Source: an uncultured SAR86 cluster bacterium (GTDB taxonomy: Bacteria; Pseudomonadota; Gammaproteobacteria; Magnimaribacterales; D2472). From it: a DNA stretch of 64,000 nt. The notes under the pieces were generated by a model. The model was not told the DNA's origin, made no database searches, and saw nothing but the letters and a program-made list of their open reading frames with translations. The position numbers were made by a program, and so were the translations under genes. Positions within the stretch are counted from its first letter, which is position 1. Each line of letters starts with the position of its first letter. This document shows positions 32,937 through 56,157 of this stretch, in pieces. The stretch lies in assembly GCA_902602595.1 (NCBI GenBank), contig CACKRJ010000004.1, positions 37,428-101,427 of the forward strand. The letters are read 5' to 3'.

Positions 32937-32983
32937 TTGACATATCGACCCTAAAAGAGTTCTAATGTGTGCACTGTAAACAT
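32937..32983 (+). promoter_or_regulatory. tolC upstream region: -35-like TTGACA and near-palindromic operator
   Basis: A consensus -35 hexamer TTGACA is at 32937-32942. The matching -10 is unclear: only weak candidates occur 17-20 nt on. At 32965-32983, ending 12 nt before the tolC ATG, the 19-mer ATGTGTGCACTGTAAACAT matches the perfect palindrome at 52759-52777 in 16 of 19 positions. Its location between promoter and start is where a repressor would bind. The identity of the regulator is unknown, though this length of site fits TetR-type proteins. Confidence 0.5.
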
Positions 32984-32994
32984 TAAATTTTAAT

Positions 32995-34326
32995 ATGAAC
33001 AAAAAAATTCTAGCCACATCTTTGCTTGCCTTTAGCATTCAATCAGCTGCAGACAGCCTGCTAGATATTTATAACGATGCGTTAGAGAACGATCCTCAAT
33101 ATAAATCAGCAGAGTTTTCATATCTATCAGGTAAAGAAATTAAAGTACAAGGTCGTGCTGGCCTTCTCCCCAATATTTCTATTAATGCACAAACCAATTG
33201 GAATGAATATTATCAAAATGGCAATCTTCAAAACGAATACAACAACTTCAATTCATCTGCTAGATTAACTCAACCATTGATTAGGCTTGATTCATGGTTT
33301 AAATACAGACAATCTAAATTTTTGACTGATGCTGCAGAAGCTGATTTTGCATATTCACAGCAAGCGTTGATCGTAAGAACTGCGGAGCTTTATTTTAATG
33401 TATTGCGTGCTATTGATAACTTAAGTGCGGCTCGATCAGAAGAAAAAGCAATTAAAAAACAATTAGACCAAATTAGGCAAAGATATGAAGTCGGGCTTTC
33501 GGCTGTAACTGAAGTCCAAGAAGCAAAATTAGCTTTTGATCTAAGTGTTGCTTCAAGGACTAGAGTAGAGGGAGAGGTGTATACAGCTAAAGAATCTTTG
33601 AATGCGTTAATTGGCAGAGAAATTTTTTCCCTTGATGGTTTAGTCAATGACCTAAATGTTACAAATCCTGTTCCAGCTTCTAAGGAAGAATGGGCAAGAA
33701 AAGCTATTGAAAATAATTTCAGACTGAAAGCTGCAAATCTTAGAAAATTTGCATCTAAAAATAATGCTCGAAGCGTAGCATCTAATCATTTACCCAAGGT
33801 TGATATTGTGGGAGTTCAAACTGAATCAGAAACTAATCAATATTCTTTTGATGGCTTAAATACTGGAGGAGCATTCAATATTACTGTTCCTGACGAAACT
33901 CAGAGAGATACTTATAGCCTGCAACTATCCATGCCAATTTTTCAAGGCGGGGCTGTAATTTCCAGGACAAAGCAAGCATATGCTGAATCCAATAAATCAT
34001 CAGAAGATGCATTATTTACAGAAAGAAGTGTTATCCAAGATGTTAGGAGTCAATACTCAAATGTAGTTACATTGGTGGCAAATCTTCGAGCGCAAAAACA
34101 AGCGGTTGTATCAGCATCAAGTGCGCTTGAAGCAACACAAGTAGGATATGAGGTTGGAACTAGGAATATAGTAGATTTACTGCAAGCTGAAAAAAATCTT
34201 TACAGCGCCGAGAGAAATCTCTCAAATGCAAAATATGATTATTTAATCACTACTCTCCGCTTGCATTTAGCAGCTGGAACTCTAAGTCCTGAAAACCTTA
34301 TTGAAATAAATAACTTACTCGGATAA
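32995..34326 (+). CDS. tolC: TolC-family outer-membrane channel protein
   Basis: The 443-residue protein has a signal peptide (to about AADS), then the LLDIYNDALENDPQYKSAEF repeat start. It has the duplicated TolC helical repeats with ADFAYSQQALIVRTAELYFNVL and the C-terminal GYEVGTRNIVDLLQAEKNLYSAE segment. TolC trimers form the outer-membrane and periplasmic duct of efflux pumps and type I secretion. No pump genes are adjacent. It is divergent from parE, and mutM follows after 2 nt. Confidence 0.96.
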   Translation: MNKKILATSLLAFSIQSAADSLLDIYNDALENDPQYKSAEFSYLSGKEIKVQGRAGLLPNISINAQTNWNEYYQNGNLQNEYNNFNSSARLTQPLIRLDSWFKYRQSKFLTDAAEADFAYSQQALIVRTAELYFNVLRAIDNLSAARSEEKAIKKQLDQIRQRYEVGLSAVTEVQEAKLAFDLSVASRTRVEGEVYTAKESLNALIGREIFSLDGLVNDLNVTNPVPASKEEWARKAIENNFRLKAANLRKFASKNNARSVASNHLPKVDIVGVQTESETNQYSFDGLNTGGAFNITVPDETQRDTYSLQLSMPIFQGGAVISRTKQAYAESNKSSEDALFTERSVIQDVRSQYSNVVTLVANLRAQKQAVVSASSALEATQVGYEVGTRNIVDLLQAEKNLYSAERNLSNAKYDYLITTLRLHLAAGTLSPENLIEINNLLG

Positions 34327-49982: not shown

Positions 49983-50966
49983 ATGATAGATTCTGAAAGA
50001 ATAAACCTTCCTGAAAAGCCTGATCAAAAATTCAAAGTAAAAAAAATCTTTGGGATTGACTCTGACCATGAGGTCAAAGGTTTTAAAGAAAAAACTCAGT
50101 GGGTTCCAGAAATTGATGAATCGTATATCTTTGATAAAGATACCACTCTAGCAATTTTAGCTGGTTTTGAGCACGATCGAAGGGTAATGATTCAGGGATA
50201 TCATGGAACAGGTAAATCAACACATATTGAGCAAGTTGCTGCAAGGCTCAATTGGCCGTGCGTACGAATTAATCTTGATAGTCACATAAGCAGAATTGAC
50301 TTGCTTGGGAAAGATGCGATTGTATTAAAAGATGAAAAACAAATCACTGAATTCAAAGAAGGCATTTTACCCTGGTCCATTCAAAACCCAGTTGCGTTAG
50401 TTTTTGATGAATACGATGCAGGAAGGCCTGATGTTATGTTTGTAATTCAAAGGATACTCGAGGTAGATGGAAAATTAACCTTGCTCGATCAAAACCAAGT
50501 AATAACTCCTCATAATAGTTTTAGACTATTTGCTACAACTAATACTGTTGGCATGGGAGATGTTACTGGTCTTTACCATGGCACTCAACAAATCAATCAA
50601 GGCCAAATGGACAGATGGCATATTCTTTCCACCCTCAATTATTTAGAACGCACGCATGAACTAGATGTAGTAAAAGCAAAAGTGCCGCAATTGAAGTCTG
50701 CTAAAGACAAAGCTCTAATTAAAAGCATGATACAGCTTGCTGATTTAACTAGACAGGGCTTTATTAATGAGGATATTTCAACATTAATGTCGCCAAGGAC
50801 AGTTATAACTTGGGCACAAAACTATATTATTTTCAATGATATCAAGCACTCATTTAGATTAACATTTCTTAATAAGTGTGATGAAACAGAAAGGCCAATT
50901 GTGGCAGAATATTTTCAAAGATGTTTTGGAGAAGATCTTTTAGAAAGTCACAACCCTGAATCATAG
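49983..50966 (+). CDS. cobS: CobS-type AAA+ ATPase (cobaltochelatase small subunit-like)
   Basis: The 327-residue AAA+ protein matches CobS in length and motifs: FGIDSDHEVKGF and WVPEIDESYIFD at the N-terminus, Walker A GYHGTGKST at 72-80 and Walker B VFDEYD (FDEYD at 141-145). TNTVGMGDVTGLYHGT forms the sensor region. In aerobic B12 synthesis CobS works with CobT and CobN to insert cobalt. No CobN or other cob gene is in the window, so the substrate may differ. It is followed by cobT after 3 nt. Confidence 0.9.
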   Translation: MIDSERINLPEKPDQKFKVKKIFGIDSDHEVKGFKEKTQWVPEIDESYIFDKDTTLAILAGFEHDRRVMIQGYHGTGKSTHIEQVAARLNWPCVRINLDSHISRIDLLGKDAIVLKDEKQITEFKEGILPWSIQNPVALVFDEYDAGRPDVMFVIQRILEVDGKLTLLDQNQVITPHNSFRLFATTNTVGMGDVTGLYHGTQQINQGQMDRWHILSTLNYLERTHELDVVKAKVPQLKSAKDKALIKSMIQLADLTRQGFINEDISTLMSPRTVITWAQNYIIFNDIKHSFRLTFLNKCDETERPIVAEYFQRCFGEDLLESHNPES

Positions 50967-50969
50967 TTA

Positions 50970-52739
50970 ATGAGTTGGGTTAAGAATAGAGAAGAATTTA
51001 AGCAAGCTGTTCTTTCAACTGCTAGAGCTGTATCTAAAAATCCAGGTTTAGAAAGTACAACGCAAGGTTCTAGTCGCCCTCCTTCTTTGTCGCAAATATC
51101 ACTACAATATCCTCCAAGATCATCTTCAGAAGTCGATGCGTGGAGGGGTGAAGGGGATTTTCAAGCATTTTGGCAAACCTTTCACAAAGAATATTCTTCT
51201 TTGAAAATGCCAAAAATAGCTAGAGATTTTTTTGCAGAACTTGAACTTTGTAGAGTTGAAATGGTTGGAGGAAGAAAATTTCCAGGCGCCAAAATTAATT
51301 TAAATGCTTACCTCAATACTCTAGCAAAAAAGGCAGTTAATAATAAAGTGCCTGCATTCAACCCACTGGCTGCAAATCTTTGGTTAAAACAACTTAATGG
51401 AGAGAAATTAGATATTGATAGCAACAATATTGTCAATGCTTTTCTCTCCTCTATTCCAATAACCATTGATAAGGTAGGCAAAGAATTAATAAAAGCGCAA
51501 GACTCTCAAGAAGATTTTCAATCTATTGTCCTGGGTCTCATGAAAGATTTAGATTTAATGCATGAACCAGAAACAAAAGGTGAGGAAGAATCTTACGACA
51601 AAGATCCAGCACCAGAAAATCCTCAAGATTCTAATGACCAGCAACCAGAAACTGAGGAAGATACTCAGGAACAAATCATTGAATCAAAAGCAGAAGGTGA
51701 TGCTGATGAAGATACTGACATCCATGCAGAAGCTCAAGCTCCAATTGATTCAACATCTATTGATGAAGAGATAGATTTAACAAGAAATTTTAATGAAGAT
51801 TTAGATCAAGCATCTTATGAGGATTATAAAATTTTTACTTCTCAATTTGATGAAGTTATAAATGCAATTGAATTAGCGACTCCTGAAGAGTCTCAAAGAC
51901 TAAGATTTCAACTAGATCAATTGATTGCTCCTCATCAAACAACGATTGGAAAGTTGGCCAACAGATTACAAAGATTGCTTCAAGCCCAACAAAATAGAAG
52001 CTGGAATTACAATCTTGAAGAGGGTTTATTGGATACAGCGCAACTACATAGGGTAATTACTCGGCCAGGAGACCCACTGAGCTTTAAACAAGAAAGCGAG
52101 AGTAAGTTCAAGGATACTGTGGTTTCACTTTTAATAGACAGCTCAGGCTCAATGCGTGGTCGATCTATGAGCTTGGCAGCAATTTGTGGGGATATTATTG
52201 GAAGTACTCTTGAGAGATGTTATGTGAAAACAGAACTGCTTGGATTTACTACAAAGCACTGGAAAGGCGGTGACTCAAGAAAAGCATGGGTTAATCAAGG
52301 AAGTCCTTTAAATCCAGGTCGTTTAAATGATTTACGACACATTATTTTTAAGTCTGCAGATGACAATTTCAGAAAGGCTAGGAAAAGTTTTGGAATAATG
52401 TTGCGAGAAGGATTATTGAAAGAAAATTTAGATGGTGAGGCTTTAGCATGGGCGCATCAAAGATTAAGCAAACGCAATGAAGAAAGAAAAATATTAATAG
52501 TTATCTCAGATGGAGCACCGGTAGACGACAGCACTTTATCAACAAATCATAGTAATTTTCTTGACAATCACTTACGTGAAATTATTAATTCAATTGAAAC
52601 TCAAAGCAATGTAGAACTTCTTGCAATTGGTATTGGGCATGATGTAACCAAATATTACTCTAAATCAATCACTATAAATAGAGCAGAAGAATTAGCAGAA
52701 GCATTACTGGATAAACTAACTGAACTTTTCAATAATTAA
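50970..52739 (+). CDS. cobT: CobT-type VWA protein (cobaltochelatase subunit-like)
   Basis: The 589-residue protein has CobT architecture: an N-terminal helical domain, a highly acidic Glu/Asp/Gln-rich linker (about residues 195-265) and a C-terminal von Willebrand A domain. The metal-ion site DSSGS at 390-394 starts the latter, and [13 protein letters not shown] is also typical. CobT binds the CobS hexamer. The pair belongs to the wider MoxR-AAA+/VWA class that activates or loads metals into partner enzymes. After its stop there are 59 nt, including a palindrome, before the diiron protein. Confidence 0.92.
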
Positions 52740-52758
52740 AAAAAAGAATATAATTGTT

Positions 52759-52777
52759 ATGTTTACACCGTAAACAT
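52759..52777. promoter_or_regulatory. Perfect 8+3+8 palindrome upstream of the diiron gene
   Basis: ATGTTTAC-ACC-GTAAACAT is a perfect inverted repeat with a 3-nt centre. It lies 19 nt after the cobT stop and 21 nt before the ATG of the next gene. No U tract follows, so it is not a terminator. A near copy (16 of 19 identical) lies before tolC at 32965-32983. Length and symmetry fit a dimeric repressor of the TetR type, but no such regulator gene is in the window. Confidence 0.6.
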
Positions 52778-52798: not shown

Positions 52799-53920
52799 AT
52801 GAAAATAACAAAAGCAGATGGGCCACCGAAAGATATTTTAACATTTAATAATTTAGAGGTTGAAAACGAATTGAATCTTACTCCAGCCCAAGTAGAAGAT
52901 GTAGCGGAAATATTTAATACGCCATTAACTGGTGCCTATAACTGGGATTACACTGTTGCAGATAACAGAATCAAGAAACTTTATGAGCTTGGCAAAGAAT
53001 TAAATTGGAATGGTTCGATAGATCTAAACTGGGATTATAATCACCCTGCTGATGAAAGAATTATTCAAGCAGATGAAGATCTGCCTCATGAGACTCTTGA
53101 AGCTTATGAAAATTTAACTGAAGAAGAAAAGATCGAATTTGACCGCCATGATGCGGCCGAACTATTAAGTCAATTTCTCCATGGTGAACAAGGAGCGCTT
53201 CTTGTCGCCTCCCAGCTAACATCATGCGCACCTACTTATAACGCAAAATTATACGCTGCATCACAAACATTCGATGAAGCAAGACACGTTGAAGTATTCA
53301 ATAGATATCTTCAGGAAAAATTAGGCATGCACTACCCCATTAACAAAAATCTAAAATTATTATTAGATAAAATTCTTACAGATGAAAGATGGGATCTTAA
53401 GTTTATCGGAATGCAAATTGTTATAGAGGGGTTAGCTCTCGCAGCATTTCAGATGTTAAAGGGGCTATCTAAAGATCCGCTCTTAACTCAACTTCTTCAT
53501 TATGTAATTCGTGATGAAGCAAGGCATGTTACTTTTGGAATTAACTATCTAGAGGACTTTATAAAAACCTTAAGCCCTGAAGAGATTGAAGATAGAGCAG
53601 AGTTTGCATATGAAGCGTGTGTTATTTCAAGAGAGAGGCTCATTAATACAAAATCAATGCAAAAATACTTAAAAATGTCTGAGGATGAAGCTCGGGAATT
53701 TGCCTTATCAACTTCAGCTAATACAACTTTTAGAAACTTTTTATTCTCAAGAATTATGCCAAACCTTGCAAGAATTGGTCTACTTACGGATAAAGTGAGG
53801 CCAAAATTTGAAGCATTGGGACTGCTAGAGTATGAAGATGCTCCAGATGATTTTGAATGTAATTGGGATGAGCTTGAGAAACCTCTAGAAAAATTTGGTG
53901 AAATTCCTCAAGCCATCTAA
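52799..53920 (+). CDS. R2-like ferritin-fold diiron protein
   Basis: The ATG at 52799 follows an AAGGA ribosome-binding site and gives 373 residues. An upstream reading adding 15 residues would cross the palindrome. Ligands of a four-helix diiron site are all visible and evenly spaced: E130 (HGEQG), E160/H163 (DEARH), E210 (IEGLA) and E240/H243 (DEARH). This is the ribonucleotide-reductase R2/AurF-type E-ExxH-E-ExxH pattern. Such proteins are oxygenases, oxidases or desaturases; the substrate is unknown. No signal peptide is present. The end overlaps the next gene by 26 nt. Confidence 0.88.
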   Translation: MKITKADGPPKDILTFNNLEVENELNLTPAQVEDVAEIFNTPLTGAYNWDYTVADNRIKKLYELGKELNWNGSIDLNWDYNHPADERIIQADEDLPHETLEAYENLTEEEKIEFDRHDAAELLSQFLHGEQGALLVASQLTSCAPTYNAKLYAASQTFDEARHVEVFNRYLQEKLGMHYPINKNLKLLLDKILTDERWDLKFIGMQIVIEGLALAAFQMLKGLSKDPLLTQLLHYVIRDEARHVTFGINYLEDFIKTLSPEEIEDRAEFAYEACVISRERLINTKSMQKYLKMSEDEAREFALSTSANTTFRNFLFSRIMPNLARIGLLTDKVRPKFEALGLLEYEDAPDDFECNWDELEKPLEKFGEIPQAI

Positions 53921-55133
53921 ACAAGTCATTGTTGGGTTACTCTTTTTAAGTAGCTCGCTTTATTCTTCCGTTCAGATTGTTCAACCATCTGAAAATGCCT
54001 ATGAGAATATTCAAGAAGCACTAATATTAGCTGAGCCTGGTGATGTCATTAGACTCACATCTGGTGTATTTAATCTGCAAGACTCTCTATCACTTGATAT
54101 AGAAGGAGTTCAAATTGAGGGAGCAGGAATGGATCAAACGATTCTTAACTTTTCTGATCAACAAAGTGGTGCGCAGGGACTTAGCGTTACCTCAGATAAT
54201 GTAACCCTGCAAGATTTCTCAATACAAAATGCTAAAGGTGATGCAATTAAAGTCAAAGGCGTAACTAACATCAAATTTTTAAGAGTAAAGACCGAGTGGA
54301 CAAATGGTCCAAGCCCAGAAAACGGAGCCTACGGTCTATATCCAGTTGAATCAACTAATGTGCTAATTGATGGTTGTGTCGCAATAGGAGCATCAGATGC
54401 AGGAATCTATGTTGGACAATCAAAAAATATAATTGTTCGAAATAGTAGAGCAGAATTCAATGTTGCTGGAATTGAGATAGAAAACTCCTACTATGCAGAT
54501 GTTTTTAATAATGTTGCAACCAATAATACTGGCGGGATACTAGTCTTTGATTTGCCAGGCTTGCCTCAGCAAGGCGGTCATCATGTCAGAGTTTTCAATA
54601 ATCGCTCTGTTGGAAATAACACAGATAACTTTGCTCCAGAGGGAAATATAGTTGGTGAGGTACCAAGGGGTACAGGAATAATTATTCAAGCAAATTCAGA
54701 TGTAGAAATCTTTGATAATGAAATTGGTGATAATGATACTGTTAATATTGCAATTGTTACATATGGCAATGAAACAGATGATGAAACTTACTATCCTCAT
54801 CCAAAATCCATTCAAATTCATGGGAATAAGTTTGGTCCGACTGGTTATAACCCTGATACAAGCAAAGGAGAATTAGCGGAAATACTTTTTGAGCTTTCAG
54901 AAGGCAATATGCCTGATATTTTTTGGGATGGCTTAGTCCCGATTTCTCAAATGATTTTTGGGCAGCCTGAAGATGAAAAAATGATAATTAGTAACAACGG
55001 GGATGCTACTTTTCTTGCAATCAATCCTATTGGCTACATGGTGCCTTTTTTAGATCCTGCAACCCTAGACATTAATGAGTTTGATGGAGAAATCTTACCT
55101 CTAGCAAAAGTAGAGTTTGATGAGACGTTTTAA
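53895..55133 (+). CDS. Secreted parallel beta-helix repeat protein (TIGR03805-like)
   Basis: The start is TTG at 53895 or GTG at 53898 (no ATG fits), giving about 412 residues with a signal peptide (VIVGLLFLSSSLYSS). The rest is a right-handed beta-helix: repeated short strands with N-ladders, such as VLIDGCVAIGASDAGIYVGQ, NIIVRNSRAEFNVAGIEIEN and ADVFNNVATNNTGGILVF. This family is known to occur paired with the diheme cytochrome family found next door; the function of the pair is unknown. It overlaps the diiron gene (26 nt) and the cytochrome gene (14 nt). Confidence 0.9.
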   Translation: MVKFLKPSKQVIVGLLFLSSSLYSSVQIVQPSENAYENIQEALILAEPGDVIRLTSGVFNLQDSLSLDIEGVQIEGAGMDQTILNFSDQQSGAQGLSVTSDNVTLQDFSIQNAKGDAIKVKGVTNIKFLRVKTEWTNGPSPENGAYGLYPVESTNVLIDGCVAIGASDAGIYVGQSKNIIVRNSRAEFNVAGIEIENSYYADVFNNVATNNTGGILVFDLPGLPQQGGHHVRVFNNRSVGNNTDNFAPEGNIVGEVPRGTGIIIQANSDVEIFDNEIGDNDTVNIAIVTYGNETDDETYYPHPKSIQIHGNKFGPTGYNPDTSKGELAEILFELSEGNMPDIFWDGLVPISQMIFGQPEDEKMIISNNGDATFLAINPIGYMVPFLDPATLDINEFDGEILPLAKVEFDETF

Positions 55134-56157
55134 GAAATCTTTCTTTTTTGTTATTTCCTTGGTTCTTTTTTCATCTCAAGGACATTCAGCTAATACATTT
55201 AATTTAGAAGATTTTTCTAAAGCTCCTAAATTTTTATCTGAATTTGGTTTTTTTCAAGACATGCAAAACCAAATTCCCGCTGAGGATGTGCACCCCTATT
55301 CTCTTGTTAGTCCTTTATTCTCAGATCATACAGATAAACTTCGTTTTGTGTATGTTCCAGAAGGACAGAAACTGGGTTATGTAAAAGATAAGGTTTTTAT
55401 TTTTCCAGTTGGATCAACTTTAATTAAAACATTTGCCTACCTGAATAAAAATGGCCCATTGGAACAGCAGTTACTTGAAACTCGACTGTTAATTAATACT
55501 AATGAAGGCTGGAAAGCAATAAGTTATGTTTGGAACGAGGAACAAACCGATGCCAAAAGAGCAATAGCGGGAGCAACAATACCAACTACTTTCATAGACT
55601 CTCATGGGAATCTAGTTGGAGTTCGCTATCGAGCGCCCAATCAAAATCAATGCAAGGAATGTCATCAAGTTAATAAAGTCATGACACCTATCGGTCCCAA
55701 GGCAAGAAATATGGATAAGGATTTAAACTATCAATCAGGAGAAATGAATCAATTGCTTTATTGGGCAGCATTAGGGTGGATTGATCAAAAACTCGATTCA
55801 ACTCCAATTTCAAGTTATGCAGATGTGAATGCATCATTGAATGATCGAGCAAGAGCCTATCTTGATATTAATTGTGGGCATTGCCATATTCCTGGTGGCT
55901 CTGCAGATACCACAGGATTATATTTAAATTTTATTGAAGATAGTCAAGAGAAGCTGGGAATTTACAAAAAACCAGTAGCAGCAGGACGTGCAAGTGGCAA
56001 CTTAAAATATTCAATAGTTCCAGGTCATGCAGATGATTCAATCATGCTTTTTAGAATGGAATCATTGGATCCAGGAATCATGATGCCAGAATCAGGTCGT
56101 GCATTAGCAGACGAAGCTGGCATTAAGCTAATTAGAGATTGGATAAATAAGCTCTAG
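55120..56157 (+). CDS. Periplasmic diheme c-type cytochrome (SO2930/TIGR03806-like)
   Basis: The ATG at 55120 gives 345 residues (a TTG one codon earlier is possible). A signal peptide (FFFVISLVLFSSQGHSA) is followed by a domain with DVHPYSLVSPLFSDHTDKLRF, typical of the SO2930/HNE_0200 family. Two heme-binding CXXCH sites are intact: CKECH at 178-182 and CGHCH at 252-256. A methionine-rich segment near the end (GIMMPESGR) may supply an axial ligand. It is the regular partner of the beta-helix protein before it. Confidence 0.92.
   Translation: MRRFKKSFFFVISLVLFSSQGHSANTFNLEDFSKAPKFLSEFGFFQDMQNQIPAEDVHPYSLVSPLFSDHTDKLRFVYVPEGQKLGYVKDKVFIFPVGSTLIKTFAYLNKNGPLEQQLLETRLLINTNEGWKAISYVWNEEQTDAKRAIAGATIPTTFIDSHGNLVGVRYRAPNQNQCKECHQVNKVMTPIGPKARNMDKDLNYQSGEMNQLLYWAALGWIDQKLDSTPISSYADVNASLNDRARAYLDINCGHCHIPGGSADTTGLYLNFIEDSQEKLGIYKKPVAAGRASGNLKYSIVPGHADDSIMLFRMESLDPGIMMPESGRALADEAGIKLIRDWINKL

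What the first reader, a model, noticed from the sequence alone, without database searches (positions are those of the whole stretch)
52759..52777. The same 19-bp operator-like palindrome precedes the diiron gene and tolC
ATGTTTACACCGTAAACAT at 52759-52777 is a perfect 8+3+8 palindrome 21 nt before the diiron ATG. The site at 32965-32983, 12 nt before the tolC ATG, matches in 16 of 19 positions with the right half-site identical (GTAAACAT). Two such sites in short leaders, 20 kb apart, suggest one dimeric repressor (TetR-like length) controlling an outer-membrane efflux channel and the diiron enzyme. That would fit response to a toxic or lipid-like compound.
Basis: partly seen in the sequence, partly recalled or inferred. 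Interest (0 to 1): 0.62.

Follow-up and report, generated by a model that had tools for sequence, protein, structure and literature searches.

The report
TetR efflux regulon in SAR86 bacteria
The two matching DNA palindromes look like real binding sites for a repressor gene lying just outside the window, which in this abundant, mostly uncultured marine group (SAR86) appears to control a drug-type efflux pump, its outer-membrane channel, a small secreted protein and an iron-enzyme operon together.

Summary
The 19-bp palindrome occurs at only four promoters in the 1.35-Mb SAR86 genome: the diiron gene, tolC, a divergent tetR / RND-efflux (MFP-RND) promoter 2.9 kb before the window starts, and a gene for a small secreted PAN/apple-domain protein. 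The tetR and PAN promoters carry two tandem sites each. Nearly every relative with this TetR has the paired sites at its own promoter. The tolC site (36 of 41 genomes of the family) and the diiron site (23 genomes) are strongly conserved against diverged flanks (95% identity inside the diiron site, 41-45% beside it). TetR paralogs with a different recognition helix carry correspondingly different operators (ACT-AGT instead of ACA-TGT centre). Best explanation: an autoregulated TetR repressor sits over the -10/+1 region of its own, the pump, tolC, PAN-protein and diiron-operon promoters, and a small hydrophobic ligand releases it. The DNA-level regulon is well supported; repression, ligand and diiron chemistry are inferred. 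It is a new member of a known kind (compare V. cholerae AtrR, RND pump and tolC). The diiron operon and the PAN protein are the unusual regulon members.

The parts
52759..52777 (.). operator of the diiron operon, ATGTTTACACCGTAAACAT
   Evidence: conserved at the same place in 23 genomes
52726..52754 (+). predicted sigma-70 promoter TTTTCA-N17-TATAAT of the diiron operon; the operator starts 4 nt after the -10, so it covers the likely +1
   Evidence: consensus match only; similar -10 at the same place in most genus leaders
52799..53920 (+). AurF-like (PF11583) diiron protein, 373 aa, with an invariant E130 / E160xxH163 / E210 / E240xxH243 ligand set
53895..55133 (+). parallel beta-helix (NosD-like) protein overlapping the diiron stop; presumed same operon
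   Evidence: order conserved in the family
55117..56157 (+). SO2930-family diheme c-type cytochrome (TIGR03806); presumed same operon
32965..32983 (.). operator of tolC, ATGTGTGCACTGTAAACAT
   Evidence: 36 of 41 family genomes
32938..32967 (+). probable tolC promoter TTGACA-N18-TCTAAT whose -10 overlaps the start of the operator
   Evidence: read; TTGACA and T(C/T)TAAT conserved in most genus leaders. Not returned by the scanner, which requires A at -10 position 2
32995..34326 (+). tolC, outer-membrane efflux channel (OEP PF02321, TIGR01844)

Best explanation
The palindrome is the operator of one autoregulated TetR-family repressor (198 aa, TetR_N + TetR_C_33), encoded 2.3 kb before the window starts (G000:C4:34525-35118). 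Its dimers bind two tandem sites between tetR and the divergent MFP-RND pump operon, and single or paired sites at unlinked promoters: tolC (the pump's missing outer-membrane channel), an AurF-like diiron / beta-helix / diheme-cytochrome operon, and a secreted PAN-domain protein. Bound over the -10/+1 region, it blocks RNA polymerase; a small, probably hydrophobic or aromatic ligand of the pump releases it, so that the tripartite pump, the PAN protein and the diiron operon are made together. Shown here: sites, positions, conservation, co-occurrence and co-variation with the regulator. Inferred: binding itself, repression, ligand, and that the diiron enzyme modifies the same compound.
For: Only four promoters in the genome carry the site, one of them tetR's own. 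All 29 readable tetR leaders in genus and family have two tandem copies 27-31 bp apart. tolC site: 20/20 genus genomes with tolC and 36/41 in the family, plus 2 genomes of another SAR86 family; it stays with tolC when the divergent neighbour changes from parE to thiC. Diiron site: 95% pairwise identity against 45% and 41% in the flanks; tolC site 92% against 61% and 64%. By my tally 132 of 138 sites (up to 1 mismatch) in 48 family genomes lie before tetR or a paralog, tolC, the diiron gene, the PAN-protein gene or a second MFP operon (against 23, 29, 33, 38, 57, 58). TetR presence and sites co-occur: 44/46 versus 5/34, Fisher p = 2e-14 (counts taken). Paralogs with helix S-TTAFYRHF have ACT-N-AGT operators, those with S-QTAPYRHF have ACA-N-TGT. 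In SAR92 relatives tetR, MFP, RND and tolC form one cluster. The sites overlap predicted promoters.
Against: No binding or expression data. Genomes are related, so p-values overstate independence. The genome is 82.8% complete, so other sites or TetRs may be missing. The diiron site is absent in one subclade and some genera, so it is not an obligatory member. G040 keeps a tolC site but no TetR was found there (87% complete). G036 and G043 have the TetR but no site at up to 1 mismatch. In SAR92, tolC next to tetR lacks its own site.
Confidence: 0.87

Rival explanations
1. The sites belong to the TetR, but it activates (or both activates and represses) some targets, for example the diiron operon, instead of repressing them.
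For: A few TetR-family proteins activate (own knowledge); the PAN and tetR leaders have two sites at different distances from the start.
Against: The diiron and tolC operators lie at or just downstream of the -10 element, over the likely +1, a repressing position.
Confidence: 0.06
2. A different, unlinked regulator shares or owns the motif, and the TetR gene is only one of its targets.
For: Regulators other than TetR were not excluded one by one; G040 keeps a tolC site without a detected TetR.
Against: Sites track TetR presence, the operator changes with the TetR recognition helix in paralogs, and similar palindromes stand before this TetR clade as far as Chloroflexi.
Confidence: 0.04
3. The diiron site is a chance or decaying copy without function; only tolC and the pump are regulated.
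For: The site is missing from a subclade of the genus, from the tested g9 genomes and from G032.
Against: Perfect or near-perfect palindrome kept in 23 genomes close to the start codon, while the flanks diverge to about 40-45% identity.
Confidence: 0.03

Closest known systems
Vibrio cholerae AtrR (VCA0767) with vexRAB and tolC (PMC10805010)
   Same: A TetR-family negative regulator whose loss raises an unlinked RND operon and the unlinked tolC together; read.
   Different: AtrR is not reported next to the pump; the words binding site, palindrome and EMSA do not occur in that paper; VexR is needed in addition; no diiron operon or PAN protein was seen in the passages read. Sequence relationship to AtrR not tested here.
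Locally encoded TetR repressors of RND pumps (AcrR, MtrR, TtgR type; own knowledge)
   Same: Divergent or adjacent TetR gene controlling MFP-RND, palindromic operator over the promoter, expected ligand release.
   Different: NCBIfam matches to AcrR and MtrR are far below cut-off (21.9 of 271 and 36.1 of 280 bits); here tolC and non-efflux operons carry the same operator.
RefZ of Bacillus (NF037937)
   Same: Best NCBIfam match of the TetR, over its N-terminal half (37.8 bits); RefZ also binds nearly palindromic sites (PMC6657595).
   Different: Far below the 180-bit cut-off; RefZ acts in septum placement, not efflux control.

Membership tests
TetR family transcriptional regulator | N-terminal TetR_N helix-turn-helix | tested here: met
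   PF00440, 31.4 bits against cut-off 24
TetR family transcriptional regulator | C-terminal ligand/dimerisation domain of a known TetR class | tested here: met
   PF13305 TetR_C_33, 32.7 bits against 26.8
TetR family transcriptional regulator | palindromic operator in its own promoter | tested here: met
   two tandem 19-bp sites, conserved in all readable relatives' leaders
TetR family transcriptional regulator | binds the operator and is released by a ligand | not testable with these tools
   needs purified protein
Tripartite RND efflux system | MFP + RND permease + outer-membrane channel | tested here: met
   RND_mfp TIGR01730 160.9 bits, cut-off 94.9; RND permease hits (291 bits, below the subfamily cut-offs); TolC TIGR01844 299 bits, cut-off 225. 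That the three work together is inferred from the shared operator and the SAR92 gene cluster
AurF-like diiron oxygenase (PF11583) | family profile above gathering score | tested here: met
   48 bits against 29.6
AurF-like diiron oxygenase (PF11583) | E / ExxH / E / ExxH metal ligands | tested here: met
   E130, E160, H163, E210, E240, H243 invariant
AurF-like diiron oxygenase (PF11583) | N-oxygenase activity | not testable with these tools
   the fold search gave only weak matches to R2-like oxidases, aldehyde-deformylating oxygenase and VlmB (E above 0.001, low-confidence model), so the reaction is open
PAN/apple domain (90-aa regulon protein) | PAN profile and fold | tested here: met
   PAN_1 matched by 16 of 20 orthologs at E up to 10 (best 5e-7) though not by the home protein itself; model pLDDT 85, Foldseek hits are mostly apple/PAN domains
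PAN/apple domain (90-aa regulon protein) | ligand binding (sugar, lipid or protein) | not tested
   none

The most novel reading that the evidence does not exclude
In SAR86 one TetR senses a natural hydrophobic compound (for example a steroid or aromatic, which SAR86 genomes are predicted to use, PMC11582366) and runs a combined 'modify and export' programme: the diiron / beta-helix / diheme-cytochrome operon oxidises it, a periplasmic PAN protein binds it, and the RND-TolC pump removes it.
Probability: 0.25. Interest if true: 0.6.

Novelty: new member of a known kind. Interest (0 to 1): 0.42.

Why it matters
SAR86 is among the most abundant surface-ocean bacteria and, with one reported isolate (PMC11582366), its gene regulation is little charted; I found no described SAR86 TetR regulon in the papers searched. 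A sequence-defined regulator, operator and target set gives a directly testable handle: the TetR can be used as a biosensor to find the compound that triggers it, and the co-regulation ties an uncharacterised diiron / diheme-cytochrome operon and a bacterial PAN-domain protein to efflux. The match between recognition helix and operator in paralogs is also a clean test case for predicting TetR specificity.

Tried and rejected
Degenerate pattern at 3 mismatches genome-wide: 68 hits against 109 for the reversed control, so background. C1:444262 (2 mismatches): inside a 598-aa ORF, treated as chance. Rhodanese as the regulated gene at C3:93953: rejected as the main target because the site stays with the 90-aa PAN gene when the neighbour changes. 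Natural loss of TetR with decay of sites inside genus g9 looked promising, but G040 retains a tolC site, so inconclusive. Literature searches for the motif letters gave nothing relevant. Fold search of the diiron model: model mean pLDDT 62, matches E above 0.001, no substrate hint.

Full report
OBSERVATION. The palindrome at 52759-52777 and its 16/19 copy at 32965-32983 are as described. Within the window no other place comes within 3 mismatches, and shuffles predict 0.01. A weight matrix trained on 46 distinct sites from other genomes' loci finds the same two places and nothing else.

WHERE THE WINDOW COMES FROM. The host genome (G000, 1.35 Mb, 21 contigs, 82.8% complete; window = C4:37428-101427) is a SAR86-cluster gammaproteobacterium: the best named TetR relatives are SAR86 genomes, and the 268,570-base contig of SAR86E (AMWX01000002.1) has the same length as the TetR contig of same-genus genome G024. 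SAR86 is now the order Magnimaribacterales with four families (PMC11582366).

GENOME SCAN. With up to 3 mismatches of the 19-mer there are four places. With ATGTTNACANNGTNAACAT and up to 2 mismatches there are seven: six lie in the same four promoters, the seventh is inside a gene. The four promoters are (a) the diiron gene; (b) tolC; (c) C4:34466 and 34497, between a divergent TetR gene and an MFP-RND operon (followed by a cupin and a TauD-like gene) just outside the window; (d) C3:93953 and 93989, between a 90-aa secreted protein and a rhodanese gene.

REGULATOR. The TetR has TetR_N and TetR_C_33 domains. All 29 readable orthologous leaders in its genus and family carry two tandem sites 27-31 bp apart. 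Similar palindromes stand before members of this TetR clade in SAR92, Pseudomonadales, Massilia and, as ATCTTGACANTGTCAAGAT, Chloroflexi. TetR paralogs in G007 and G060 with recognition helix S-TTAFYRHF carry sites with ACT-N-AGT centres; those with S-QTAPYRHF carry ACA-N-TGT (a third paralog with S-NNAFYRHF carries mixed centres). This is the strongest sequence evidence that the TetR itself reads the motif.

CONSERVATION OF THE TWO WINDOW SITES. tolC: the site is present in 20/20 genus genomes with a tolC and 36/41 genomes of the family, and in G049 and G076 of another SAR86 family, even though the divergent neighbour changes from parE to thiC (these two gene names are my reading of the sequences, no profile was run); in the two g10 genomes the site is also near the thiC-like gene, so there the target is ambiguous. 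Diiron: 23 genomes in at least five genera. Mean pairwise identity is 0.95 in the diiron site against 0.45 and 0.41 in the 25-nt flanks, and 0.92 against 0.61 and 0.64 for tolC. In the family, 132 of 138 sites with up to 1 mismatch (my tally) lie before tetR or a paralog, tolC, the diiron gene, the PAN-protein gene or a second MFP-RND operon. TetR and sites co-occur (44/46 against 5/34; p = 2e-14, not corrected for relatedness).

PROMOTER GEOMETRY. The diiron operator begins 4 nt after a TATAAT with TTTTCA 17 bp upstream. The tolC operator overlaps the end of a T(C/T)TAAT element 18 bp after a conserved TTGACA. For MFP, TTGACA lies inside the second operator, TATACT between the two, and the first operator downstream. 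This is the geometry of steric repression. These promoters are consensus matches, not mapped.

TARGETS. MFP, RND and TolC make a complete tripartite pump; in SAR92 relatives the tetR, MFP, RND and tolC genes lie in one cluster, which supports that they work together, although tolC there lacks its own site. The diiron protein is AurF-like with a full E/ExxH/E/ExxH ligand set and is followed by an overlapping beta-helix gene and an SO2930-type diheme cytochrome, an order kept in nearly all family members examined. The 90-aa protein is a secreted PAN/apple domain. Hence a regulon of efflux plus a periplasmic binding-type protein plus an oxidative operon.

COMPARISON. V. cholerae AtrR is the nearest reported analogue: a TetR whose loss raises an RND operon and the unlinked tolC (PMC10805010). 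Homology to AtrR was not tested. The SAR86 system works like known TetR-RND repressors and meets the sequence criteria of the TetR family; ligand release and binding were not testable. The co-regulated diiron operon and PAN protein are the unfamiliar part.

CONCLUSION. The finding is a well-supported, new, but conventional TetR efflux regulon in an important uncultured group; the inducer and the diiron chemistry are open.

Noticed in passing
L068, L069, L070 (diiron leaders of G021, G003, G004): Where the subclade has lost the TetR operator, three genomes carry another inverted repeat, CTCAC-N6-GTGAG, at the same place before the diiron ATG; possibly a regulator swap.
   Followed up: no
G000:C3:93635-93904 (L006:8633-8905): A 90-aa secreted PAN/apple-domain protein family that diverges fast (28-80% identity) but in most genomes keeps one or two operators, pairs being 29-43 bp apart.
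   Followed up: partly
L161, L165, L174, L177: In G023, G027 and two genomes of another SAR86 family the same operator stands before a second MFP-type gene.
   Followed up: partly
G000:C5:23453-24454: A second AurF-like diiron paralog (62% identical) exists in the genome; some relatives hold three copies.
   Followed up: no
L005:6993-8365: A cupin gene and a TauD-like dioxygenase gene follow the RND gene closely on the same strand and may belong to the pump operon.
   Followed up: no
window 49983-52739: CobS/CobT-like genes directly precede the diiron operon; the CobT neighbour is kept throughout the family members examined.
   Followed up: partly
L173 1974-7915: G007 has two extra TetR paralogs, each with its own tandem operators of altered centre, next to an esterase-like gene and an unidentified gene.
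   Followed up: partly
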